Shown in pieces: positions 35,376 through 50,692 of a stretch of DNA of 64,000 bases; position 1 is the first letter of the stretch, and each line of letters opens with the position of its first letter. Both the position numbers and the translations under genes were made by a program. Under the pieces are notes generated by a model that worked only from the letters and a program-made list of their open reading frames with translations, made no database searches and was not told the DNA's origin. This DNA comes from Methanospirillum hungatei JF-1 (GTDB lineage: Archaea > Halobacteriota > Methanomicrobia > Methanomicrobiales > Methanospirillaceae). Location of the stretch: NCBI RefSeq assembly GCF_000013445.1, contig NC_007796.1, positions 2,268,936 through 2,332,935 of the forward strand. The letters run 5' to 3'.

Positions 35376-35835
35376 ATTCTAATCCAAAAGTTATAATTAA
35401 TCTATTGACAAACATAAAAAAGTAGCTGATTGCTGGAATAATGTGAGAAGAGACGGGATGATGTATCCAGGTCATCATTGATACGCCAATATCGATACCT
35501 AAGTTCCTGAAACCGATTTGTCTCTCTGAAAAATCTAATATTCATAAATTTAAGCATACACCTGCATATCATAGTGTTGTGATTCTCATGCCTTGAATAC
35601 CGTCTTTGATGAATCGAAAAAATACCAAACTCTGTTCACTCCATACACTTTAGCGATAAGAAACCGGTTTACCATATTGCAGAACGTTTTGTGTATCCAA
35701 TACTGTCTGCTTTCTATCAGGGCGATAGCCATAAATTCTGAACATTCCTTCACTATGTGAGGAGTCAGCGCCCATGTGTTATACAGGGACTTGAAGATTC
35801 ACTGCTCACAGAATTCAACAGATATAGGAGTTTTC
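35376..35835. other. Non-coding gap between moeA and a binding-protein gene
   Basis: 460 bp without a supported gene. AT-rich stretches near 35375-35410 could be the moeA promoter (read leftward), and the 3' end holds the ribosome site ATAGGAG (35824-35830) for the gene at 35836. No repeats were noticed. Confidence 0.5.
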
Positions 35836-37083
35836 ATGGGGTTAAATGCGAAAATTGGTTCAGTTATGGTAGTACTACTCTGCATCTGGTGTGTTTCAGC
35901 TCACCAGGAGATTATCATCGGCACAATAATCGATGAACAAGGAGACTGTGCTTCATATGCAGCGGGAGTAGAAGCGGCAATAGATCTTGCGGTTTCAGAT
36001 TTAAATGACAGTTATGCGAAATCAGGCCTGGATACCACAGTCACGATAATAAAATCTACCTCCAACGGGACACGGGAGAGTGCTGCACAGGCAGCTGAAG
36101 ACCTAATCAGTCAGGGTGCCAGGGTAATAGTCGGTCCTTCTTCTTCAGAAGAAGTATCCGGCGTTCTCCCAATCCTCACTAGTACAGGGATATTCTCGGT
36201 AAATCCATCGTCATCGAGAGCCCTCTCTCTCCCCGGCGATCCGATGGTAAGATTATGTCCTGATGATTCAAACCTGATGAAAGCGGTATTAAGATATCAC
36301 CAGATGAACCCGCAGGACTCTCAAAGAACAATGATCGTGATTCTTGCACGGGAAGATCTCTATGGTAAGGTATTGAGCGATATGTTCTCATCATCTGAGC
36401 AGATGGCAGATCCTGTTACCTACCCGGCTCATACCCGCGACTTTACCCAGGCCCTGAAAACTCTTGATTCAATTGTAGATCCGATGATTGCGGAGGTCGG
36501 AGAGAGGAATGTTACCATCATCGTCGTCTCCCTGGATGAGACGGGTGATCTTCTGGCACAGGCATCCGCCTATCCAGGCCTTGACAAAGCACGGTGGGAA
36601 GGTATGGATGGTGCAGCACTTCATACAACCATCCTGGAGAATGAAACCGCTGCAGCGTTTGCTTATAAAACCGGATTCACCGCTCTTTCATTTAATATCG
36701 CTCAGCCGCCGGTATCAGATTATTGGCGGGTTTTTGATGCAGTAAAAGATGCAAAAGGGGGGAAGGTCCCCTGTATCTATGAGATCCTTGCATATGATCA
36801 GACCCTAATGGCTGCATGGATAGAACAGAATAACCCTAAAAATCCTGAAGAGATGCTCTATATCGCTGATAATTATGGGAAGTATTCCTATGCTGCAACG
36901 GGTTGGCTGAAACTCAATGAAAACAGTGACCGGGAGTTTGGGGATTATTATTTTTACACAGTGGATAAATCCGAAGATGGATATTACTGGAAGCCGGTCT
37001 ATGTATACAAGTATGAAAGTGATACTATTCAATCCCTGAATGGTATCAACAATACGTTCATGGAACGATTTTTGGAGAAATAA
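35836..37083 (+). CDS. Periplasmic ligand-binding protein, amino-acid ABC type (LivJ-like)
   Basis: About 415 residues. A signal peptide (KIGSVMVVLLCIWCVSA) precedes a type I periplasmic binding fold: EIIIGTIIDEQGDCASYAAG, VEAAIDLAVSDLNDSY, SQGARVIVGPSSSEEVSGVL, then VTYPAHTRDFTQALKTLDSI. The frame opens 20 codons earlier, but ATG 35836 has the ribosome site ATAGGAG and starts the signal peptide. No permease or ATPase gene is adjacent, so it may serve as an orphan receptor rather than a transporter component. A T-rich stretch (37112-37118) follows as a likely terminator. Confidence 0.87.
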   Translation: MGLNAKIGSVMVVLLCIWCVSAHQEIIIGTIIDEQGDCASYAAGVEAAIDLAVSDLNDSYAKSGLDTTVTIIKSTSNGTRESAAQAAEDLISQGARVIVGPSSSEEVSGVLPILTSTGIFSVNPSSSRALSLPGDPMVRLCPDDSNLMKAVLRYHQMNPQDSQRTMIVILAREDLYGKVLSDMFSSSEQMADPVTYPAHTRDFTQALKTLDSIVDPMIAEVGERNVTIIVVSLDETGDLLAQASAYPGLDKARWEGMDGAALHTTILENETAAAFAYKTGFTALSFNIAQPPVSDYWRVFDAVKDAKGGKVPCIYEILAYDQTLMAAWIEQNNPKNPEEMLYIADNYGKYSYAATGWLKLNENSDREFGDYYFYTVDKSEDGYYWKPVYVYKYESDTIQSLNGINNTFMERFLEK

Positions 37084-37194: not shown

Positions 37195-37650
37195 ATGTTC
37201 TGTCATCAGTGTGGAGCTGAAGTATCTGAGGGGAGCAAATTCTGTGAATCTTGTGGAGCACAGGTCAACCAGGATTTTGAATACAAATACGAAGAAAAAC
37301 AAACCGGGCAGAAAACCCACTATACCTTATCTGAAAACCAGAAGAATCCCACCCTTGCTGCCATCGCAAGTTTTCTCTGGTCCGGGATGGGGCAGGTCTA
37401 TAACGGAAACCTGTTCAAGGGGTTTGCCTTTCTCATTGGTGCTCTGATTGGATCAATGATATTTCTTATACCAGGTATCATCATCTGGATCTTCGGGATT
37501 TACGATGCATATAATACTGCGAACCAGATGAATCGTGGAGAAATTCCCTATGTGGAACACAGCATGGGCCAGATCATCATATTTGTTCTGGCAACGCTTG
37601 CATTAATTGTGATATTCTTCATATTTGGCCTTGCCATCGCAGGATTCTGA
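37195..37650 (+). CDS. Zinc-ribbon TM2-domain membrane protein
   Basis: 151 residues. The N-terminus is a zinc ribbon, MFCHQCGAEVSEGSKFCESC GAQV. After a polar linker a TM2-like domain follows (NPTLAAIASFLWSGMGQVYN, then two hydrophobic helices and the IWIFGIYDAYNTANQMNRGE signature), with a last helix IIIFVLATLALIVIFFIFGL. TM2 domains are small membrane modules of unknown biochemical role. It is the first of a run of six same-strand genes to 45166. The gap to the next gene is 30 bp. Confidence 0.87.
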   Translation: MFCHQCGAEVSEGSKFCESCGAQVNQDFEYKYEEKQTGQKTHYTLSENQKNPTLAAIASFLWSGMGQVYNGNLFKGFAFLIGALIGSMIFLIPGIIIWIFGIYDAYNTANQMNRGEIPYVEHSMGQIIIFVLATLALIVIFFIFGLAIAGF

Positions 37651-37680
37651 AACGTGAAATCGCAAAGGGGTGGTGATCGT

Positions 37681-38280
37681 ATGAAACATTATTTCATTCT
37701 GGTAGTATGGTGTGTTTATCTCGTATGTGCCGGCTCTTCGGGCTGGGTTCCGACTCCCACCCCTGACATGGATCAGCTGGAGGCAGAATACCGGGCTGAG
37801 GAGTATGTCCTGTCTGAATATCACAACCTGACCGGCAAGACCGATAAAGAGGCTGATCGTCTTATGCTTCAGGGGCTTATGCTCTCACAATCGGGCAGGT
37901 ATGCAGAGTCCAAAGAGTATTTTTCAAAGGTCACCACACTGACACCAGACAACCCTGATGCCTGGTACTACCTGGGGATGAGTGAATACCGGCTCAATCA
38001 GTCAGAAAACGCAATAAAGGCCTTTCATAAATCACTTGAGATAAATCCGGACTTTGCCTATGGGTACTATGGTCTTTCATTGGTCTATGCACAGCAGGGA
38101 GATATCTGGAAACAATCAGACGCACTATCTCGTGCACTTGAGATAGAGGAGAAAGCCGGAGTTGAGTCCCATAATCAAGGTGCCCCGGTACAGACAACTC
38201 CCGCAATACCACTCTGCACGGCCACTGCAATAATTGGTATTCTCTGTGCAGGAATCTGGTTTGAAAATCATAAACGGTGA
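37681..38280 (+). CDS. Membrane-anchored TPR protein
   Basis: 199 residues from ATG 37681, chosen over an earlier in-frame start because GGGGTGGTGAT sits 4 bp upstream. The N-terminus looks like a signal or anchor (HYFILVVWCVYLVCAGSSG). Two to three TPR units follow (LMLQGLMLSQSGRYAESKEY, DAWYYLGMSEYRLNQSENAI, A-Y-G-Y-Y-G-L-S-L-V-Y-A-Q-Q-G-D). It ends with a membrane helix LCTATAIIGILCAGIWFENH. TPRs mediate protein contacts; its partner may be the large protein encoded at 39114. Confidence 0.82.
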   Translation: MKHYFILVVWCVYLVCAGSSGWVPTPTPDMDQLEAEYRAEEYVLSEYHNLTGKTDKEADRLMLQGLMLSQSGRYAESKEYFSKVTTLTPDNPDAWYYLGMSEYRLNQSENAIKAFHKSLEINPDFAYGYYGLSLVYAQQGDIWKQSDALSRALEIEEKAGVESHNQGAPVQTTPAIPLCTATAIIGILCAGIWFENHKR

Positions 38281-38319
38281 TCGTATCATGCATCAAAACC
38301 ATACCGGGGAATGTGATCC

Positions 38320-39099
38320 ATGACAATACCCAAAGGATATCTATACGGGCCTTCTCTCCTGATTCTCCTCTGTTTGTTTTGTTTAATGGTGCCAGTATCT
38401 GCTCAAAGTGATTTTTGTCCTGGCTCTGTGATGACAGATGCATCAGCCGCCTGCCTTGAGTGTGCGAAGACAAAAACCTGTACCCAGGATGAACGGTGCA
38501 TGAGGGCACAATGCTGTTTGTGCAGATGTTATCCCAATTGCTGTTTCCAGCAGGCTGAAACTGACTGCTCCCGATTTTCCTGCTCCTGTAATGACGGAGG
38601 GTCAGTTTCCCCTGATGGTAATGGGGACGGGACTTTTATTATTCTCATAGGCGGACTGCTTGCTGCAGGGGGAATCGGAGCTGCTGTACTAAAGGCCAGG
38701 AATAAACCTGCTGCACCGGTACAGAAGGGTACGGCTTTGAAGAAAGAAGAGGAAAAGGAGAAGAAGGCGGTCAGGTATGTTCTCCAGTTATCAAAGGACA
38801 TGGTCCGGGTATCAGGAGATAAACCAGACTCATTTTCCGTCACCGTCTGGAAACTACTCGAAACCGGCGAGTATATAAAGCAACCAGGAGCCCCTATTCA
38901 GGTATCAGGTCCTTCAATACCCGGACTTACAATCCGGCCATCCTCCGGCATGGGAACCCTTCAGGTCACAGTCTCTCTTTCAAAACCTGTACCGGTTACA
39001 TCTGCTGAACTGACCATATCAGCATCAGCCGGAGGGATGACACAGAAAGCTACGGTGCATGTCACCATAGAGCAGTCATTACAGGTCGGATTTGAGTAG
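38320..39099 (+). CDS. Cys-rich secreted/membrane protein with a beta-sandwich tail
   Basis: 259 residues. A signal peptide (LLILLCLFCLMVPVSAQS) precedes a Cys-rich segment of about 65 residues with some 16 Cys (CLECAKTKTCTQDERCMRAQ CCLCRCYPNCCF). A Gly-rich helix (IILIGGLLAAGGIGAAVL) spans the membrane, then a Lys/Glu linker, and a C-terminal domain of about 100 residues (YVLQLSKDMVRVSGDKPDSF onward) that by pattern is a beta-sandwich. Its style (short P-G-x-x-I-R-P and L-x-V-T-V-S-L-S-K-P steps) resembles repeats in the next protein. Topology would put the Cys-rich head outside and the sandwich inside. No family recognised. The stop is 14 bp before the next start. Confidence 0.8.
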   Translation: MTIPKGYLYGPSLLILLCLFCLMVPVSAQSDFCPGSVMTDASAACLECAKTKTCTQDERCMRAQCCLCRCYPNCCFQQAETDCSRFSCSCNDGGSVSPDGNGDGTFIILIGGLLAAGGIGAAVLKARNKPAAPVQKGTALKKEEEKEKKAVRYVLQLSKDMVRVSGDKPDSFSVTVWKLLETGEYIKQPGAPIQVSGPSIPGLTIRPSSGMGTLQVTVSLSKPVPVTSAELTISASAGGMTQKATVHVTIEQSLQVGFE

Positions 39100-39113
39100 G
39101 GTGGTGAAAAGGG

Positions 39114-42100
39114 ATGAAATTTTCAAAACCAATCCCATATCATCCCGACACCAGAACACTTGGCCCGGTCAGTATGAAGATCTGGTTTTACCTTGCTGAT
39201 AACAAGCGGGTGAAACTCAATCATGCATCCGCCTCTCTGACTCCAGGTTCAGGATGGGAAGGACTCGTTGACCTCAAAACCCGGTACATCCTGGATAACA
39301 CAACCTTTCAGATTGATGCATCGCTGAAAAGGCCACTCAGGTTATCCGAGTATCAGGGCCTGATTCTTACAAAAAGATCCATTCCCATCCAGAGCACCCT
39401 CACCCCCGAAGGTTCTGTTCCAGGTATGGGGATACCGGTCCCAATTGGTGGAGCACCGGTCATCGATCAGATTGATCTCACCATTCCTGATATCCCGCAT
39501 CCAGAGCTCATAACAGACGTTTACTATGCCGGGAATGATGAATCCGGTCATCCTGTTGCAGTGGTACAAGCGACAGTCAATCTCCCCTTTACATTCACCG
39601 AAGAGGAGATAGCAGGGATTACCGAGTGTATTTCAATATCGGTGACCGATGGGAGAACTGCTATCACTGAAGGTCCGGAGATAATCGAAGGGCAATATAA
39701 GAAGCGATTCATTACCGGTAATGCTCCACCTGATGTGATGCAAAAATCTGGGGTAATTGTTACCGTTCGTTCGTCGGTTGCCGGTCTTTTACTGGCAGAG
39801 GAGGTTTCTCTCACCTTTGCCCCCTCTCTATCCTATATCCTCAATATTAAACCCTCACGGTCCCTTTTCGTAACCGTAAAAGATCCTGCTCATCTTCATG
39901 CCGAAGTCTTTTCGCAGGATGAATCAGGAACGCTCCGACAGGTACCAGATAGCGAATTACATCTGGATCTTCCGTCAGGCATATCAGAATTTTTATCAGT
40001 CTCTCCCATAACAGCCAGGGGTGTCCTGAATGCAGCCATAACACAGACCCGTCCGACCAATCTGCAAGAGATCGAGTTCTCCCTCAACGCTTCGGTTCAT
40101 GAGGACGCCGTACCCCCACAGACGATTACGGTGCATTTCAACGCCCCTGCATCCCGATCAATCGAGACACGATTCGAAAGTGACAAAAATGCCATCTCTC
40201 CCTTTCTCATACCTGATCGTGCAATCCTCCTGGTCAGGTTCAGCACAGACGCCCCTGAAGCACCGATCTGGACCTTTGAACGGGCACAACCGGATGGATG
40301 GCTTGATGAACCCAGCACCCCCGTTGATTATGGTGACGGATGGACTGCGGTTGCTCTAAAGGCCACTCCTCCGGACCCTGAGTACACCGGTGATCCTCCG
40401 GCATCAGAAGATATCATTATCACCGCAACTTCAGGGAATACCCGTTCAGGGCCCGTCTCTGTCCCGGTGCTGCTCCTGAAAAGGCCAACAATCGAGGCAG
40501 ATACCTATCAGGTCACGTTGGTGAAAGGAATTAAAGAGACTGTGAGAGTTCAGGTCCGTATTGACCATGGCGGATCTGAATCATGGGTGTTTGCAATTGA
40601 TCCTGAAAAAACGCTCAAACGTGTCAATGCAACCATTACCGGTCTGGATGATACCCATGCAGAGATAGCCATGACAGAGCAGGACTCCCCTGATGAGCGG
40701 TCAGAGAGCCTGTATGATTCAGAGACTGTCATCGTCACCGCATCGCCCCGGTCAGGAGAACTCTCCTTCCCTCTGGAATGCCATATAGCCGTCATTATCT
40801 CAAAAGAGGGCCTTTTCATAGATACCATCGCCAGACGGAAGGATACCGGAATGTATCATGTCCCGGTGCCGAATTCACAGATGGATTCTTCCGCTCTTCT
40901 GGATTTTTACTACCTGGTCCTCACTGAAGATAATCAGATAATTTCTCATACTTCTGCCATCACCGACCCAAGCCCTCTGGATTTTACCACCATGGAGGAT
41001 GAAAAGACAAAACCCTATAATGCAGCCAAAGGATCTGGTCTTACCTTTGTGTCCTCAGGAGTGAGGCAACTCAATACTCCATCAGCGGTCTATTCAGTCT
41101 CGATGATTCGTCCGATACCCTTTGACGGAACCCCGATTCCGGTCAGATGCCGTGCAACGGTCCAAAACCATGCCGGTTCTGAAGAGACCGGGTATTGTGA
41201 CTTCATTCTTGCCCTTGAGACTGATAATGTCAATCCGGGGAGTGCCAGCTGGGAGATTGAAGTCCGCCGGTGTGAACGCATCATCAACACCATGGCACCA
41301 GAGCAGGCCAGACCAGAACTTCATACACTCCTTTCCAAACGTAAACAGGTCCTCGGCGTTGAGGGGCTTGTTCAGCTCAGATGGATGATCTATAACCGGG
41401 CGTACCGGCTCTGTCTTGAGGAGGCACAGGATTACCTGGATGCAGCAAACCGGTATGATCAGATCATCGAGGCCCTGGAATGGGTAAAGTGGGCCGGAGA
41501 TCTCGCCTTCAATGCTGCCCTTGGAACGGTGGTCGGACCCTTTGGGGCGATCGCCATTAATCATGTAAAGGGGAAGATCCTGGGTGCTCTTGAGGCCTAC
41601 CAGATGGGAACACCTCCGGAGTCTTTTATCAGTTTCGATGATATCAAGGGCATAACCGAAGGAAAACTTATCGATCCGGATCAACTGGCAAAACTCACCG
41701 GTGAGCGGAGATGGCTTGCATGGGGGCTGTTTGCCGGCTATCACTTCCTGAAAACCCTCATTTATGGAGACCCCCCGAACAATACCGTTGTGGGAGCTGC
41801 AAAGGAGACCGCACGACAACTGAGGGATGAGGTCATTGCAGACTGGCTGAATAGTACTGTAAAAGATCATGGAACAAAGCAGGTATCGGGTATCATAAGA
41901 GGCGGGAAAGAAGAGACAGGCGGAAAGAAGAAGCCAGATCTGACTCAGAAAAAACCCGTACCGGAGGGAAAACCAGGAGATGAAAAAGCAAAGGAAGAGG
42001 GCAAAACGAAGCCGGATGAAGTGAAGCAAAAAGAGGAAACCGGAAAAGAGAAGGAAAGTCCGGAAGGGAAGGATAAGGAGGATAAGAAGAAACCCGATGA

Positions 42101-43673
42101 GAGACAGGCAAAAGAAGGGAAAAAGACAGCAGATGAAAAGTTAAAGGAAGCAACCTCTGAATATGATCGGCTGAAATCTGAATATGATGCCATAAAGGAC
42201 AAATCATCCAAAGAAGCGAAAGAAGCAGCGAAAAGACGTGATAACGCACGACTGGCTATGGAGAAGGCAAAGGCTGAATCCCTGGCAGATAAGAACATCG
42301 CCGACTCTCAAAAGGAAGTGGATGCACGGGAGAAGATGAAGTTCGAAGAAGGGAGGAAGGAAGGCCGGAACAAGGTCAATGAGCTCAAAGATGCCTGGGA
42401 GAATCTTCAGAAGAATCCGGATGATCCTGCTGCGAAAAAACGGTTCTCCGAGGTCTGTGAGAAGGTGCAAAAGGACAAGCATGCCATGCATGTTCTCAAT
42501 GATGAACCCCACATACTTGATGGTAAAACCAGAAAACCCGGTGAAGAAAGTCCGCTCCGACGAGACTTCAATGAACACTGGAAACAGACCTATGACAATG
42601 TGGACCGGAGGGTTAAGCAACGAATCGCAGACCAGCTGAATCAGAACCTGAAACCAGGTGAGAGACCATATGGTCCGGATGATATTGAGATTGCAAAGAT
42701 CACCAATGTGAAAGATGCGACACCCAGAACTCCAGACCAGGAGAGCACGAAATCCACCTTTGACCGTGATGTCACCTACCGAAAGCCAAAGCAGCAGATG
42801 AGGATAGATCCCCATACCGGAAAGGCAGTCATAGACATGAAGACAGGCCAGCCGGTGTATGATCCTGTCATCGATCCCAGGACCGGTAAACCGGAGATGG
42901 AGGATGTCAAAAGCACGAATGAACCGGTCAGGGATGTGAAGGGAAATACACGGACGGAGAACGGAAAACTTGTAGAACAGGAGGGAACCGGCTCACGGGA
43001 TATCTACAACCAGGAATTTTACCGAGAGCGACATGGAGAGTACCCGTATAAGACTGATGCAAGCGGAAGAGTCATCACGGGGCCTGACGGGAAACCGGTC
43101 ATCGATCAGGCAAAATGCAATGAATATGCCGAACATATGGATCAGACCGTTACCGACCGGTTCCATACCGATGCATATGGAGGAGGAAAGGAGGATATTG
43201 GCCCGGCAACACGGGGAGACATGAAAGGAAAACCCTACAAGGATCTTGAAGCAACAACCCGTACCATGGAGACGAAGGTGTATGAGTGGTATGACCGGGC
43301 CGAAAGGGCAATGAAATCTGGAGATCCTAAAGCTGCCGGGGCGTACAAGGAGGAAGGAATGCGACAACTGACCAAACAGTTTAAAAACCAGATTGAACCG
43401 GTTGTAAATAAATACAACGAACTAGCCGGGTATCCGGATCCTCCCATTGCACGAATCCCGGAGAATGTCCGTGCCGGTGTTGAGATCATGAACCGGGTTG
43501 GAAAAGATGGATTTACTCCTGCAGATGCCGAGGCAGCCCTTGCCCATATGGGCGAATCCCCACGGAGCATCATTCAGAAGATGTCAGGAATCCTTGAATC
43601 AGGTCAGAAACATATGTCAGCAGGTCAGAGACAGCAGTTACACGAATATCTGAAGACTCTTCCCGATGAGTAG
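39114..43673 (+). CDS. Very large multi-domain protein of unknown function
   Basis: 1,519 residues, no signal peptide. Residues 1 to about 700 read as a chain of beta-sandwich domains (L-T-P-G-S-G-W-E-G-L, YILNIKPSRSLFVTVKDPAH). About 760-830 is helical with a hydrophobic Gly-rich stretch (GDLAFNAALGTVVGPFGAIA). About 925-1065 is a Lys/Glu-rich linker and coiled coil (KEETGGKKKPDLTQKK; SEYDRLKSEYDAIKD). Residues about 1230-1265 carry tandem D-P-x-T-G-K-x-V/E-x-D units, and the polar C-terminus has YRERHGEYPY, EHMDQTVTDRFHTDAYGGGK and a helical end. I know no matching family. The order (repeats, hydrophobic segment, charged linker, polar tail) recalls polymorphic-toxin or effector proteins, but no catalytic motif is seen. 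The start ATG 39114 has a GGTGGTGAAAAGGG ribosome site. Confidence 0.9.
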   Translation: MKFSKPIPYHPDTRTLGPVSMKIWFYLADNKRVKLNHASASLTPGSGWEGLVDLKTRYILDNTTFQIDASLKRPLRLSEYQGLILTKRSIPIQSTLTPEGSVPGMGIPVPIGGAPVIDQIDLTIPDIPHPELITDVYYAGNDESGHPVAVVQATVNLPFTFTEEEIAGITECISISVTDGRTAITEGPEIIEGQYKKRFITGNAPPDVMQKSGVIVTVRSSVAGLLLAEEVSLTFAPSLSYILNIKPSRSLFVTVKDPAHLHAEVFSQDESGTLRQVPDSELHLDLPSGISEFLSVSPITARGVLNAAITQTRPTNLQEIEFSLNASVHEDAVPPQTITVHFNAPASRSIETRFESDKNAISPFLIPDRAILLVRFSTDAPEAPIWTFERAQPDGWLDEPSTPVDYGDGWTAVALKATPPDPEYTGDPPASEDIIITATSGNTRSGPVSVPVLLLKRPTIEADTYQVTLVKGIKETVRVQVRIDHGGSESWVFAIDPEKTLKRVNATITGLDDTHAEIAMTEQDSPDERSESLYDSETVIVTASPRSGELSFPLECHIAVIISKEGLFIDTIARRKDTGMYHVPVPNSQMDSSALLDFYYLVLTEDNQIISHTSAITDPSPLDFTTMEDEKTKPYNAAKGSGLTFVSSGVRQLNTPSAVYSVSMIRPIPFDGTPIPVRCRATVQNHAGSEETGYCDFILALETDNVNPGSASWEIEVRRCERIINTMAPEQARPELHTLLSKRKQVLGVEGLVQLRWMIYNRAYRLCLEEAQDYLDAANRYDQIIEALEWVKWAGDLAFNAALGTVVGPFGAIAINHVKGKILGALEAYQMGTPPESFISFDDIKGITEGKLIDPDQLAKLTGERRWLAWGLFAGYHFLKTLIYGDPPNNTVVGAAKETARQLRDEVIADWLNSTVKDHGTKQVSGIIRGGKEETGGKKKPDLTQKKPVPEGKPGDEKAKEEGKTKPDEVKQKEETGKEKESPEGKDKEDKKKPDERQAKEGKKTADEKLKEATSEYDRLKSEYDAIKDKSSKEAKEAAKRRDNARLAMEKAKAESLADKNIADSQKEVDAREKMKFEEGRKEGRNKVNELKDAWENLQKNPDDPAAKKRFSEVCEKVQKDKHAMHVLNDEPHILDGKTRKPGEESPLRRDFNEHWKQTYDNVDRRVKQRIADQLNQNLKPGERPYGPDDIEIAKITNVKDATPRTPDQESTKSTFDRDVTYRKPKQQMRIDPHTGKAVIDMKTGQPVYDPVIDPRTGKPEMEDVKSTNEPVRDVKGNTRTENGKLVEQEGTGSRDIYNQEFYRERHGEYPYKTDASGRVITGPDGKPVIDQAKCNEYAEHMDQTVTDRFHTDAYGGGKEDIGPATRGDMKGKPYKDLEATTRTMETKVYEWYDRAERAMKSGDPKAAGAYKEEGMRQLTKQFKNQIEPVVNKYNELAGYPDPPIARIPENVRAGVEIMNRVGKDGFTPADAEAALAHMGESPRSIIQKMSGILESGQKHMSAGQRQQLHEYLKTLPDE

Positions 43674-43682
43674 AGGTACTCT

Positions 43683-44480
43683 ATGACTACAAAAAAATGT
43701 CCGGCATGCGGTCAGGATAATTCACAAGGAGCGAAGTTCTGCAGATCCTGTGGTACTCCACTCCAGACTGGATCACACGGTGTTGGTCCGGATGTTGGCA
43801 AAAGCACCGGTGATTCCTTCCAAAAGGCGACTGAGATCCTTGATACCGTCGCATCCACCGCTTCTAAAATAGAATCAACGGTGACAAAGGCTGCACAGAT
43901 TGGAACGGCTGCCCAGGAGATATCGCAGGTAATCATCCGTCCCCCGGCTGAATGGCAGGTTGTTGTCGGAGACATCCTTCCTGCTGCAGGTGAGAAGATC
44001 GTGGAACAGGGAATGGAAACGGCAGAAGAGAGAGTTAAGCAGGTGGTAAGCCAGAAGATTACAGACGTTCTTTCTGACACCCCTCTGTCCGGAAAAAGTG
44101 AGCCTGATCGATTTAATAATCTCCCTGAAACCTTTGTTCCGGTTGAAAAACCCCTAAAATCAGGAGCGAACCTTCTCTGCCCCTCCTGTAAACAACCGGT
44201 AAATCCTGGTGCGAAATTCTGTAAAACGTGCGGGGCCCGGATTCCTGTCAAAAAACCTTCATCCCCGGTTCAGACCAACGGGATAGATCCAAATCTCCCT
44301 GTCTGTACTTCCTGTAAAGCGCCACTCTCCCCAACTGAGAAGTATTGCAGGCATTGTGGAGAACCAACAGGGTCCTTTGCCCGCCACGGCATGGAGGGAT
44401 CCGTGACACACTGCCCCTCATGTGGGAAAGACCTGAAACCAGGAGCAAAATTCTGCAGACATTGTGGAACAAAGATATGA
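43683..44480 (+). CDS. Multi-zinc-ribbon protein
   Basis: 265 residues with four zinc ribbons of the C-x2-C-x(8-10)-C-x2-C type: CPACGQDNSQGAKFCRSC (residues 6-23), CPSCKQPVNPGAKFCKTC (about 164-181), CTSCKAPLSPTEKYCRHC (about 208-225) and CPSCGKDLKPGAKFCRHC (about 243-260). Between the first and second lies an amphipathic helical region of about 100 residues (DTVASTASKIESTVTKAAQI). It starts 10 bp after the large gene's stop. Likely a cytosolic scaffold or nucleic-acid/protein binder; the exact role is unknown. Confidence 0.87.
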   Translation: MTTKKCPACGQDNSQGAKFCRSCGTPLQTGSHGVGPDVGKSTGDSFQKATEILDTVASTASKIESTVTKAAQIGTAAQEISQVIIRPPAEWQVVVGDILPAAGEKIVEQGMETAEERVKQVVSQKITDVLSDTPLSGKSEPDRFNNLPETFVPVEKPLKSGANLLCPSCKQPVNPGAKFCKTCGARIPVKKPSSPVQTNGIDPNLPVCTSCKAPLSPTEKYCRHCGEPTGSFARHGMEGSVTHCPSCGKDLKPGAKFCRHCGTKI

Positions 44481-44509
44481 ACGGATATCATCAGAACACA
44501 GGTGATAAT

Positions 44510-45166
44510 ATGAACAAATGTCCTCATTGTGGATCAGATCTCCCTCCTGACAGTGCATTCTGCCAGGAATGTGGAAAACCGGTATCAATTTCAGAACAAT
44601 CATCATCGGACTCGATGGTCTGGACCGCCCAGATACCGGTGATTACCAGTTCGGTTGTTGTCAGACAACTGGGTATGGCTCTGGGTGGAGGGTTTCTTGT
44701 GGTGTTTGTCATCATCCTGTTCGCCCATCCCGGAGCTGCACTCTCTGTCGCACCCATCCTGTTTGTCATCTGGGTCTTCTTATTCGGACTGTCCCTGTTC
44801 ATCGCCGGAATATACCAGAAGGCAACGAAAGGGGGGCCTGATGCAGTCTTCGCCGTGACCCCTGAAGGAATTGGCTATGCTGCAGGGGAGACTATCAAAA
44901 AGATCAACAGGCTTACTGCCATCGGATCTGTTGCCGGCGGATCACTCAGCGGCCTTGGAGGCAGCATGATAAACATCTCCCGTGAGATGGATACAATTCC
45001 CTGGGATGAGATCAGGTCCATAACGTACCAGAACCGGGAGCGGACCATCGTTGTGTATAGAAAAATTCTGATCTCTCCTATCATGCTGGCGTGCACGAGA
45101 GAAAATTTCAACCAGGTAAAAGAGCTGATATCCCGGTATGCACCGCCCGGAACGATCAAAGAATAA
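44510..45166 (+). CDS. Zinc-ribbon membrane protein with a PH-like tail
   Basis: 218 residues. It starts MNKCPHCGSDLPPDSAFCQE CGKP, a zinc ribbon, then two hydrophobic helices (GMALGGGFLVVFVIILFA; VAPILFVIWVFLFGLSLFIA). The C-terminal part (about 120-218) carries DTIPWDEIRSITYQNRERTI VVYRK, the pattern of bacterial/archaeal PH-like (bPH) domains. ATG 44510 has the ribosome site AGGTGAT; another possible start, ATG 44477, overlaps the previous stop. The open frame further upstream is a shadow of the preceding gene. Last member of the 37195-45166 block. Confidence 0.85.
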   Translation: MNKCPHCGSDLPPDSAFCQECGKPVSISEQSSSDSMVWTAQIPVITSSVVVRQLGMALGGGFLVVFVIILFAHPGAALSVAPILFVIWVFLFGLSLFIAGIYQKATKGGPDAVFAVTPEGIGYAAGETIKKINRLTAIGSVAGGSLSGLGGSMINISREMDTIPWDEIRSITYQNRERTIVVYRKILISPIMLACTRENFNQVKELISRYAPPGTIKE

Positions 45167-48200: not shown

Positions 48201-50498
48201 TTATCCAAACCCTGCCTGATATGTCCCGTTCTGTGAGCAGTACAGCCAGTACCCGTGGTATGGTCGTATTGGCCGTTCATCGCTCTGGTGACCGGTTCCT
48301 CCCCTGATTATCGGTTCTTCGTACTGCTGCACGACTGCGTCATACCCGGTGGCATATGACCAGGCATTCATCAGGGTGTGGAATGTCTCTTTCGCTGAAA
48401 GATCCTTCTCCATCCAGCCTCCAATCGATGACCATCCTACCGGAATCTCCCGGGAAAAAGGAATAATCTGGTCTGTAAACCTGACCGGGACAGTTATGGT
48501 ATTGGTTGAATAGATCCAGTATCCCTGGAGGGGAACCACCGGATCATTCATTGAGAGCGTTCTGTATCCGGTGGTATTATTCACATATACAAGGACTGAA
48601 TGGCCGGATGAGTTCACCCCGGCAAATATTTGTGCAGTATCATATCCTGGGTTGAGTCGCCTGGGGATGGATACATGATTCCATCCCGGATAAAGTGGGA
48701 TTCCATCGGACTTCTTCAGAGACTTCAGGGCTGCAGAGAGGTTTACCCGAGCACCGGTGATGGTTTTATCCTGCAGTGACGGGAGTGGGTCAGCGGTATC
48801 CATGATCACCTGTTTTACTCCTTCTGCCGTAAGATCAGGTTTTTTCCCTTTGATAAGACCGGCCATTCCGGATACCATGGGAGCTGCCATTGATGTACCA
48901 CTCATGTACTGATATTCAGGCTTTATTGCTTCACCCCGGTATCCGATCCTTATATTTCTGATAGAAAAGTCTGATGTAACATCTCTCTTAAACAGGATAT
49001 AGGTATATCTGGTCCTGAATCCTGATTCGGTATAGACAGAATTAAGCGGGATGAAGAGTTGTCTCCAGTGATCTTCGTGAAATTCTGTATCAAAATCCCA
49101 CAAGGATGTCCAATTTACAATATCATTTGAGTATTCAATTATCTGATACCCAAAAAAATCACCTTTTACCTCCCAGATCAGATGAGGGATTTTATTTTCT
49201 TCAGAAGGGATATCAACAGAGGTATTCATCTCGATGACAAATGTAGAAATGTCAGGATAATCTGAGAGAACTGCCTGTAATGACACGGGCTCTCCTGGCA
49301 TGGTTCCAGGAATGCGGGTCCAGTTCCCGGTAAGCGTAAAATTCTCCTTTGCAAATGTGGGGTCTTCAAAGAACGAAGTATAGGAATATCCGGATGGAAT
49401 GGTACTGTATATATCAGTACCCGGAGCTCCAACATGGACCGTCCGATTGCCAAAATTCGAAAACCACGATAGTTCATCCTGTGGATCAGTGGCAGCGACC
49501 GCTATCACATTACTGAAGTTATAACATGCCGGATACTGGGGAAACATATTCAGATCCCCTCCATAATTTCCTGCTGAGCAGACAAATAGTGCAGGAGACT
49601 TTCGGATAATATCCTCCATTGTCCGGCTGTACGGTGTTCCAAACGAGCAACTGATGATCGAGGCATTATAGAGCGTGGCATACGCCATGCCAAATGCCAG
49701 ATCTGATAGTCGGCCATGGCCTTTGTAATCAAGGACTTTAATCGGCATGATAGTAGCATTCCAGGCTACTCCTGCCCCTCCAAGGTTATTATTCCCAATC
49801 ATACCAATAACCCCGGCACAATGGGTTCCATGACCATCATCATCCCAGGGTTCAACCGCTATTTCCTCCAGAGCGTTTAATCCATGCAGCACCAGCCCTG
49901 ATTGAGACATGCTCCAGATATTTCCGGCAAGGTCAGGGTGACCAATATCTGCTCCGGTATCAAGAACGGCAATGATAATCCCATTCGTTCCGGTGGTTTC
50001 ATTCCATCCGGAAAGGGCACTAATATCTGCACCGGAAATCCCCGGGCTGGTATTTTCCTTAAAAGGAGTTCCGGTATTGGAAAGCCCCCATTGTCTCCAG
50101 AACTCTGGATCATCCGGAGTTGTGTGGGCACTGACATAATAATCTGGTTCTGCATAGGCTACACCCGGGCATTCGGAATAATACCGGACTGCATCAGGAA
50201 CCGAAATAGTGTCCGGAAGAGTGACCAGGGATAATCCGGATATGCCGATGGTCCCATAATCGCGTTTAATCGTCGCTCCTATTGCTGCATGAATATCTGA
50301 AAGGGAATTGACTGATCCGTCTGGATTTGTATTTGCCTGCACAAGGATACTTCCATTCACGTATGGAGGATCAGGCAGAAAATTCGGAATTCCGGTAGCA
50401 TTCGTGAAATATTTAATATCATCTGCCAGACCAAATAAAAAGGAGAGACCGACCAGGCAGACCAGGAGGCAGATTACTTTGCTTAGTATTTTTCTCAT
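48201..50498 (-). CDS. Secreted subtilisin-like (S8) protease with inserted and surface domains
   Basis: 765 residues from ATG 50496-50498; a further 12 codons upstream would spoil the signal peptide ILSKVICLLVCLVGLSFLFG. An inhibitor-like prodomain is followed by the catalytic core: Asp in IIAVLDTGADIGHPDLAG (about 180), His in DDDGHGTHCAGVIG (about 223), oxyanion Asn in FVCSAGNYGG and Ser in YMSGTSMAAPMVSGMAGLI (about 535). The long His-Ser distance is due to an inserted jelly-roll-like domain of about 140 residues (TLTGNWTRIPGTMPG onward). The C-terminal 180 residues (GIPLYPGWNHVSIPRRLNPG; P-L-Q-G-Y-W-I-Y) are a domain of methanogen surface proteins. All triad residues are present, so it should be active. 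Confidence 0.93.
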   Translation of the reverse strand: MRKILSKVICLLVCLVGLSFLFGLADDIKYFTNATGIPNFLPDPPYVNGSILVQANTNPDGSVNSLSDIHAAIGATIKRDYGTIGISGLSLVTLPDTISVPDAVRYYSECPGVAYAEPDYYVSAHTTPDDPEFWRQWGLSNTGTPFKENTSPGISGADISALSGWNETTGTNGIIIAVLDTGADIGHPDLAGNIWSMSQSGLVLHGLNALEEIAVEPWDDDGHGTHCAGVIGMIGNNNLGGAGVAWNATIMPIKVLDYKGHGRLSDLAFGMAYATLYNASIISCSFGTPYSRTMEDIIRKSPALFVCSAGNYGGDLNMFPQYPACYNFSNVIAVAATDPQDELSWFSNFGNRTVHVGAPGTDIYSTIPSGYSYTSFFEDPTFAKENFTLTGNWTRIPGTMPGEPVSLQAVLSDYPDISTFVIEMNTSVDIPSEENKIPHLIWEVKGDFFGYQIIEYSNDIVNWTSLWDFDTEFHEDHWRQLFIPLNSVYTESGFRTRYTYILFKRDVTSDFSIRNIRIGYRGEAIKPEYQYMSGTSMAAPMVSGMAGLIKGKKPDLTAEGVKQVIMDTADPLPSLQDKTITGARVNLSAALKSLKKSDGIPLYPGWNHVSIPRRLNPGYDTAQIFAGVNSSGHSVLVYVNNTTGYRTLSMNDPVVPLQGYWIYSTNTITVPVRFTDQIIPFSREIPVGWSSIGGWMEKDLSAKETFHTLMNAWSYATGYDAVVQQYEEPIIRGGTGHQSDERPIRPYHGYWLYCSQNGTYQAGFG

Positions 50499-50692
50499 AA
50501 AGGTGATCTCAGTGAAAGAATATGGTATCTTCATTATTCTTATGCTTTTTTATAAAAAATTCTCTATCAATATAAACCACTGATAAATGCAGGTATGTTG
50601 TAAATAACATGATATTCGGTCTTTTCTATTCGTTCATTATTTGATTATTTTCTCATCAGCAACCATCAATATCCAGATAACAGATAAACCAT

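What the first reader, a model, noticed from the sequence alone, without database searches (positions are those of the whole stretch)
37195..45166. Six-gene zinc-ribbon/giant-protein block, candidate undescribed system
Six same-strand genes with gaps of about 10-40 bp encode: zinc ribbon + TM2; TPR with membrane ends; a Cys-rich head + TM + beta-sandwich; a 1,519-residue protein of beta-sandwiches, a hydrophobic Gly-rich segment, a charged coiled linker and a polar tail; a four-zinc-ribbon protein; and a zinc ribbon + two helices + PH-like domain. Three members share the same zinc-ribbon type and three have membrane segments, so they look like parts of one membrane-linked machine. The large protein resembles effector or toxin layouts, but no catalytic motif is visible. 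Seen: the genes and domains. Inferred: joint function.
Basis: partly seen in the sequence, partly recalled or inferred. Interest (0 to 1): 0.8.

Follow-up and report, generated by a model that had tools for sequence, protein, structure and literature searches.

The report
Archaeal zinc-ribbon operon with swappable effector
A methane-making archaeon carries a linked six-gene set in which a giant protein keeps the same front part from genome to genome but swaps its tail, next to a membrane protein whose outer part also varies, which looks like a previously unrecognised conflict or self-recognition system.

Summary
The six genes are real, co-directional (gaps 9-39 bp) and belong together. The giant gene (BIG, 39114-43673) occurs in 14 of 231 genomes of the order; around it the same partners recur: a signal-peptide/TM/Ig-like protein (CysTM), a multi-zinc-ribbon protein (4ZR), a zinc-ribbon/membrane/PH-like protein (ZrPH) and, often, the ZrTM2 and TPR genes. 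BIG is modular. Its Ig-like front and hydrophobic middle are constant, but the tail belongs to one of at least four types, exchanged between closely related proteins: 69% identity over 974 residues, then unrelated. The window's tail (type A, invariant DxD) also ends a membrane protein of a bacterium, Acetoanaerobium noterae, whose operon carries a ZrPH homologue. CysTM varies at the other end: several unrelated, often Cys-rich ectodomains on a constant TM + Ig-like part. The block is accessory: absent at the same site in a close relative. No Pfam, NCBIfam, PADLOC or PHROG family covers BIG. Best reading: a membrane-anchored receptor-adaptor-effector conflict system that works like a polymorphic toxin system but lacks its known delivery parts. 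Whether the effector acts inside the cell or is delivered to rivals is open, and no activity is shown.

The parts
37195..37650 (+). ZrTM2: N-terminal zinc ribbon plus two hydrophobic segments, 151 aa
   Evidence: homologues (37-47% identical; 93% in G075) near BIG in G098, G101, G105, G095, G031, G004 and G075
37681..38280 (+). TPR protein with N-terminal signal/TM segment and C-terminal TM segment, 199 aa
   Evidence: TPR homologues near BIG in most loci
38320..39099 (+). CysTM: signal peptide, Cys-rich ectodomain (16 Cys before the TM, none after), TM at residues 106-124, basic/charged stretch, Ig-like domain (about residues 150-259)
   Evidence: Ig-like part matches the BIG front profile columns 241-357; ectodomain is replaced by unrelated types in relatives
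39114..43673 (+). BIG: 1519-aa modular protein
   Evidence: no Pfam/NCBIfam/PADLOC family
39114..41183 (+). BIG residues 1-690: constant beta-rich (Ig-like, inferred) front, no signal peptide
   Evidence: alignment A3; order search
41184..41903 (+). BIG residues 691-930: conserved hydrophobic helical middle region
   Evidence: alignment A2; distant matches in 1057-1186-aa proteins of other families
41904..42338 (+). BIG residues 931-1075: charged low-complexity linker (59% K/R/E/D/Q)
   Evidence: length varies between relatives
42339..43673 (+). BIG residues 1076-1519: exchangeable tail, type A
42762..42770 (+). codons of D1217-R-D1219, invariant in type A, bacterial and type D tails
43683..44480 (+). 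4ZR: one N-terminal and three C-terminal zinc ribbons, 265 aa
   Evidence: gene of this type follows BIG (or the extra type-B gene) in the loci examined
44510..45166 (+). ZrPH: zinc ribbon, hydrophobic segments, C-terminal PH-like (unverified) domain, 218 aa; start ATG at 44510

Best explanation
A membrane-anchored receptor-adaptor-effector conflict system. CysTM carries a variable ectodomain outside the cell and an Ig-like domain inside. BIG, which has no signal peptide and shares that Ig-like domain, docks on it through its constant front; its hydrophobic middle holds it at the membrane and a charged linker presents an exchangeable effector tail. The zinc-ribbon membrane proteins and the TPR protein would assemble, gate or regulate the complex. 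An outside cue (rival cell, kin contact or virus) would release or activate the tail. Shown by sequence: the genes, their linkage, tail exchange, ectodomain variability, accessory distribution. Inferred: topology, docking, cue, and that the tail is an enzyme or toxin.
For: Tail exchange on a constant carrier: G031 and G101 are 69% identical over residues 1-974, then unrelated; G095 and G004 are 56.5% identical over 1-1047, then unrelated; G107 and G004, which share type B, are 47% identical overall but 64-80% in the tail. On the front-region tree, well-supported branches force at least 4 changes of the type A label. CysTM: several unrelated ectodomains on one constant TM + Ig-like part; Cys up to 17 before the TM and essentially none after it; basic residues follow the TM, so the Ig side should be cytoplasmic. 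Gene-neighbour conservation. The type A tail (27% identity over 89% of the query, E=1e-24) and ZrPH (E=6e-6, full length) recur together in one operon of the bacterium A. noterae. All three type B loci (G004, G107, G009) have an extra 270-274-aa gene between BIG and 4ZR, a candidate immunity gene; a type B relative sits inside a giant Streptomyces protein (97.5% hhalign probability). Patchy presence: 14 of 231 genomes; absent at the moeA-hisG site of G077, whose hisG is 97% identical.
Against: No tail matches a known enzyme or toxin family and the models of the type A tail have no convincing structural match. Type A, C and D loci have no dedicated extra gene that could be immunity. Distant relatives in other families of the order fuse signal peptide, ectodomain, TM and BIG-like parts but have no exchangeable tail and none of the zinc-ribbon partners nearby, so the carrier can exist without an effector. 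ZrPH occurs alone next to hisG in G082 and alone in G006. Topology rests on hydropathy and charge only.
Confidence: 0.5

Rival explanations
1. A polymorphic toxin system in the usual sense: BIG is exported by an unrecognised route, with the zinc-ribbon/membrane proteins and CysTM as the export or surface-display machine, and the tail is delivered into competing cells.
For: Constant front and swapped tail, patchy distribution, linker before the tail, extra gene tied to type B tails, hydrophobic segment before the tail that could serve entry. A PrsW-like gene with a zinc ribbon lies near BIG in G095.
Against: No signal peptide on BIG and no known trafficking domain. No PrsW peptidase in the window's genome. 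No dedicated immunity candidate for types A, C and D. In the bacterium and in the fused relatives the tail side of the last TM looks cytoplasmic.
Confidence: 0.25
2. A cell-envelope or signalling scaffold without a conflict role; tail variation reflects adaptor swapping, with the tails acting as binding or regulatory domains.
For: Tails match no known toxin; fused tail-less relatives are conserved in other families; zinc-ribbon/TM proteins are common in envelope functions (general knowledge).
Against: Accessory presence, non-homologous tails on closely related carriers, rapidly varying ectodomain, extra gene linked to one tail type.
Confidence: 0.2
3. The genes are neighbours by chance and do not form one system.
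For: Gene order and strand vary between loci; ZrPH occurs alone in some genomes.
Against: Recurrent co-location in about a dozen loci, zinc-ribbon clustering in the genome, and a shared operon in a bacterium.
Confidence: 0.03

Closest known systems
Polymorphic toxin systems (Zhang et al. 2012, PMC3482391)
   Same: Constant front part with exchangeable C-terminal modules; patchy distribution; an extra gene tied to one tail type.
   Different: No recognised secretion signature, no known toxin domain, no immunity candidate for the window's own tail; paired with a variable-ectodomain membrane protein and zinc-ribbon membrane proteins. The paper describes such systems as rare in archaea.
VARTIG modules of Thermococcales (Makarova et al. 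2021, PMC8416519)
   Same: Archaeal, large protein with Ig-like domains, variable C-terminus, accompanying variable genes.
   Different: In VARTIG the variable part is the C-terminal Ig domain of a mostly secreted protein; here the Ig-like part is constant, the tail is not Ig-like and BIG has no signal peptide. The authors searched other archaea and reported no counterpart.
PrsW-dependent polymorphic toxins (PMC3482391)
   Same: A PrsW-like gene with a zinc ribbon lies near BIG in G095.
   Different: PrsW is not fused to the effector and the window's genome has no PrsW match.
Nucleotidyltransferase superfamily / HEPN-MNT modules
   Same: Type D tails carry EFGTPGAKPGEKLNTDRDFRAV, close to the hG[GS]x9-13[DE]h[DE]h pattern (recalled from memory); the DxD is invariant; the helical end of the model resembles HepT-like and other four-helix bundles.
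   Different: No profile match; bundle Z of 6.6-7.3 is within the range of a common arrangement; type A itself lacks the G[GS].

Membership tests
Polymorphic toxin system | constant N-terminal region with recombining, non-homologous C-terminal modules | tested here: met
Polymorphic toxin system | recognised trafficking/secretion domain or signal on the toxin protein | tested here: not met
   no signal peptide on BIG; no Pfam/NCBIfam domain in BIG; a still unknown route is not excluded
Polymorphic toxin system | immunity gene next to the toxin | tested here: inconclusive
   candidate only beside type B tails; none specific to type A
Polymorphic toxin system | C-terminal module with toxic activity | not testable with these tools
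   no family match; needs expression assays
VARTIG | hypervariable C-terminal Ig domain in a secreted Ig protein | tested here: not met
   variable tail shows a mostly helical model; Ig-like part is the constant front; no signal peptide
PrsW-dependent toxin system | PrsW peptidase fused to or encoded with the toxin | tested here: not met
   no PF13367 match in the genome
Nucleotidyltransferase fold (type A tail) | hG[GS]...DxD motif and NTase fold | tested here: inconclusive
   DxD invariant, G[GS] only as GT in type D; models of pLDDT about 70-72 without a clear match
Known anti-phage defence systems (PADLOC 2.0) | match to a listed defence protein | tested here: not met
   only sub-significant zinc-ribbon matches

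The most novel reading that the evidence does not exclude
An archaeal membrane sensing system that is polymorphic at both ends, with exchangeable extracellular sensor domains and exchangeable cytoplasmic effector domains on one constant Ig-like core, functionally comparable to modular innate immune receptors and shared in part with bacteria.
Probability: 0.3. Interest if true: 0.87.

Novelty: new variant of a known kind. Interest (0 to 1): 0.68.

Why it matters
Polymorphic effector systems are described as rare in archaea (PMC3482391), and a dedicated search of archaeal Ig-protein loci reported no counterpart to VARTIG outside Thermococcales (PMC8416519). This block gives a defined, testable conflict-like system in methanogens. 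It has exchangeable tails of unknown biochemistry, one of them shared with a bacterium, and would show how methanogens recognise or fight neighbours or viruses.

Tried and rejected
Family searches (Pfam, NCBIfam, PADLOC, PHROGs) of BIG, its segments and the other tail types gave nothing significant. PDB sequence searches with profiles of the type A, B and D tails and of the front region gave only chance-level matches. Two AlphaFold models of the type A tail (mean pLDDT 71.9 and 69.9) gave no significant Foldseek match; VIA-align rows are four-helix bundles at Z up to about 8, not distinctive. A PrsW-dependent toxin system was considered and dropped because the genome has no PrsW. Homology between the type A and type D tails: hhalign supports only the last ~60 residues; the DxD equivalence rests on the multiple alignment. 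Homology of the middle domain to the A. noterae protein was not found. The 437-aa gene of G029 and the 366-aa gene of A. noterae match only in their zinc ribbons. IMG/VR and INPHARED hold no relative of the type A tail. Bacterial genomes at large could not be searched with a sensitive profile: the single genome-contig scan used short archaeal patterns. Searches returned errors.

Full report
WHERE. The window is bases 2268936-2332935 of a single 3,544,738-base contig. The size fits what I remember for Methanospirillum hungatei JF-1, and the closest named record to the tail, 96% identical, is a M. hungatei isolate.

OBSERVATION. Six co-directional genes with gaps of 9-39 bp are confirmed. The last one starts at ATG 44510. 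Zinc ribbons of type PF13240 are found in genes 1, 5 (four) and 6; TPRs in gene 2; nothing above cut-off in genes 3 and 4. Of nine PF13240 matches in the whole genome, six are here, far beyond chance.

CO-OCCURRENCE. A profile of the BIG front region finds 14 of 231 genomes of the order; the same profile also picks out the neighbouring CysTM gene, whose Ig-like domain matches columns 241-357. Reading the loci, CysTM lies next to BIG and a 4ZR-type gene follows it wherever flanks exist. ZrPH, ZrTM2 and TPR homologues are usually within about 10 kb, in varied order and strand, together with further zinc-ribbon proteins. Close ZrPH homologues are in 15 of 231 genomes and 12 of these have BIG (p about 1e-15). 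In three genomes (G098, G101, G105) a BIG copy is encoded as two overlapping genes, front and back.

MODULAR TAIL. Alignment of BIG proteins shows a constant front (A3), a conserved hydrophobic middle (A2), a charged linker of varied length, and tails of at least four kinds. Type A: window, G075, G078, G095, G098 (two copies), G101, G105. Type B: G004, G107, G009. Type C: G031. Type D: G029, G090, partly resembling A. Pairwise scans locate the switch after the middle region: 69% identity over 974 residues (G031/G101) or 56.5% over 1047 residues (G095/G004), then none, whereas two type B proteins stay 64-80% identical in the tail though only 47% identical overall. The front-region tree requires at least four changes of tail A, forced by well-supported branches. 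Exchange of terminal modules on a constant carrier is the hallmark behaviour of polymorphic toxin systems (PMC3482391).

TYPE B DETAIL. Type B loci alone have an extra 270-274-aa gene between BIG and 4ZR, a candidate immunity gene by position. A type B relative lies inside a giant Streptomyces protein annotated 'lonely Cys domain-containing'.

TYPE A DETAIL. The window's tail has a relative ending a 1576-aa membrane protein of the bacterium Acetoanaerobium noterae (27% identity, E=1e-24). That operon also has a 245-aa zinc-ribbon membrane protein homologous to ZrPH over its full length (E=6e-6) and a 366-aa protein with a C-terminal zinc ribbon. So the tail-ZrPH pairing crosses domains of life. 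Residues invariant in archaeal, bacterial and type D tails include a DxD pair, D1217 and D1219 in BIG. In type D the context EFGTPGAKPGEKLNTDRDFRAV resembles the nucleotidyltransferase signature (from memory), but profiles and models do not confirm it. It is a lead only.

VARIABLE ECTODOMAIN. CysTM homologues share TM, basic stretch and Ig-like domain, but their secreted parts fall into several unrelated types. In the window it is Cys-rich, with 16 Cys before the TM and none after. With a signal peptide and positive charge after the TM, the Ig-like side is predicted cytoplasmic. BIG has no signal peptide. Distant relatives in other families of the order fuse signal peptide, ectodomain, Gly/Ala-rich TM and BIG-like parts in one chain, supporting that CysTM and BIG act together and that BIG lies on the inner side; these fused forms have no exchangeable tail and no zinc-ribbon operon nearby.

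ACCESSORY NATURE. In G077, whose hisG is 97% identical, the moeA-hisG interval holds a histidine-kinase-like gene in place of the block. In G082 only ZrPH remains next to hisG, and G083 has ZrPH fragments.

INTERPRETATION. Shown: one recurrent, accessory gene set, polymorphic at the effector end and at the ectodomain end, with a constant Ig-like core and zinc-ribbon membrane partners. Inferred: a membrane-held receptor-adaptor-effector system in which an outside cue activates or releases the tail. The main rival is delivery of the tail to competitors. BIG fails the test of a recognised trafficking domain and, for its own tail type, shows no immunity gene, so I do not file it as a classical polymorphic toxin system; it evolves like one.

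NOVELTY. No family library covers BIG. Full-text searches found no description, with the limit that one relevant paper on archaeal polymorphic toxins (mBio 2019) was not held. VARTIG of Thermococcales is the nearest published archaeal analogue and differs in which part varies.

Noticed in passing
L039:4875-5711 and L043:2469-3341 (minus strand): PrsW-like membrane peptidase with a C-terminal zinc ribbon near BIG in G095, and a zinc-ribbon-ended protein of similar length in G004; the PrsW assignment is by eye.
   Followed up: partly
L043:10587-11465, L041:3028-3858 (minus), L045:2365-3180: Type B tails carry a spaced Lys-Lys pair and a GDNDPFAY motif that recall bacterial nucleotidyl-cyclase-type toxin domains from memory; no Pfam match, not tested further.
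   Followed up: partly
L040:10518-11153: Type C tail of G031 (about 210 aa) has no family match and is unlike the other tails.
   Followed up: partly
L075-L084: 1057-1186-aa fused proteins (signal peptide, ectodomain, Gly/Ala-rich TM, BIG-like parts) conserved in other families of the order, without an exchangeable tail.
   Followed up: partly
L034:3-3599: In G078 the linker is a long run of EGDQEKPVDGEKVKVK repeats and the tail is in a separate overlapping frame (frameshift, split or assembly error).
   Followed up: no
window 35776-37083: Periplasmic-binding-protein-like gene 111 bp upstream on the same strand; it accompanies the block in G075 but was not seen at the other BIG loci.
   Followed up: partly
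L085 (NZ_CP154629.1): A 2.63-Mb A. noterae record labelled 'plasmid' carries ordinary metabolic genes and looks like a chromosome.
   Followed up: no
window 48201-50534 (minus strand): Secreted subtilisin-like protease of 777 aa (GTSMAAP motif by eye), not linked to the block.
   Followed up: no
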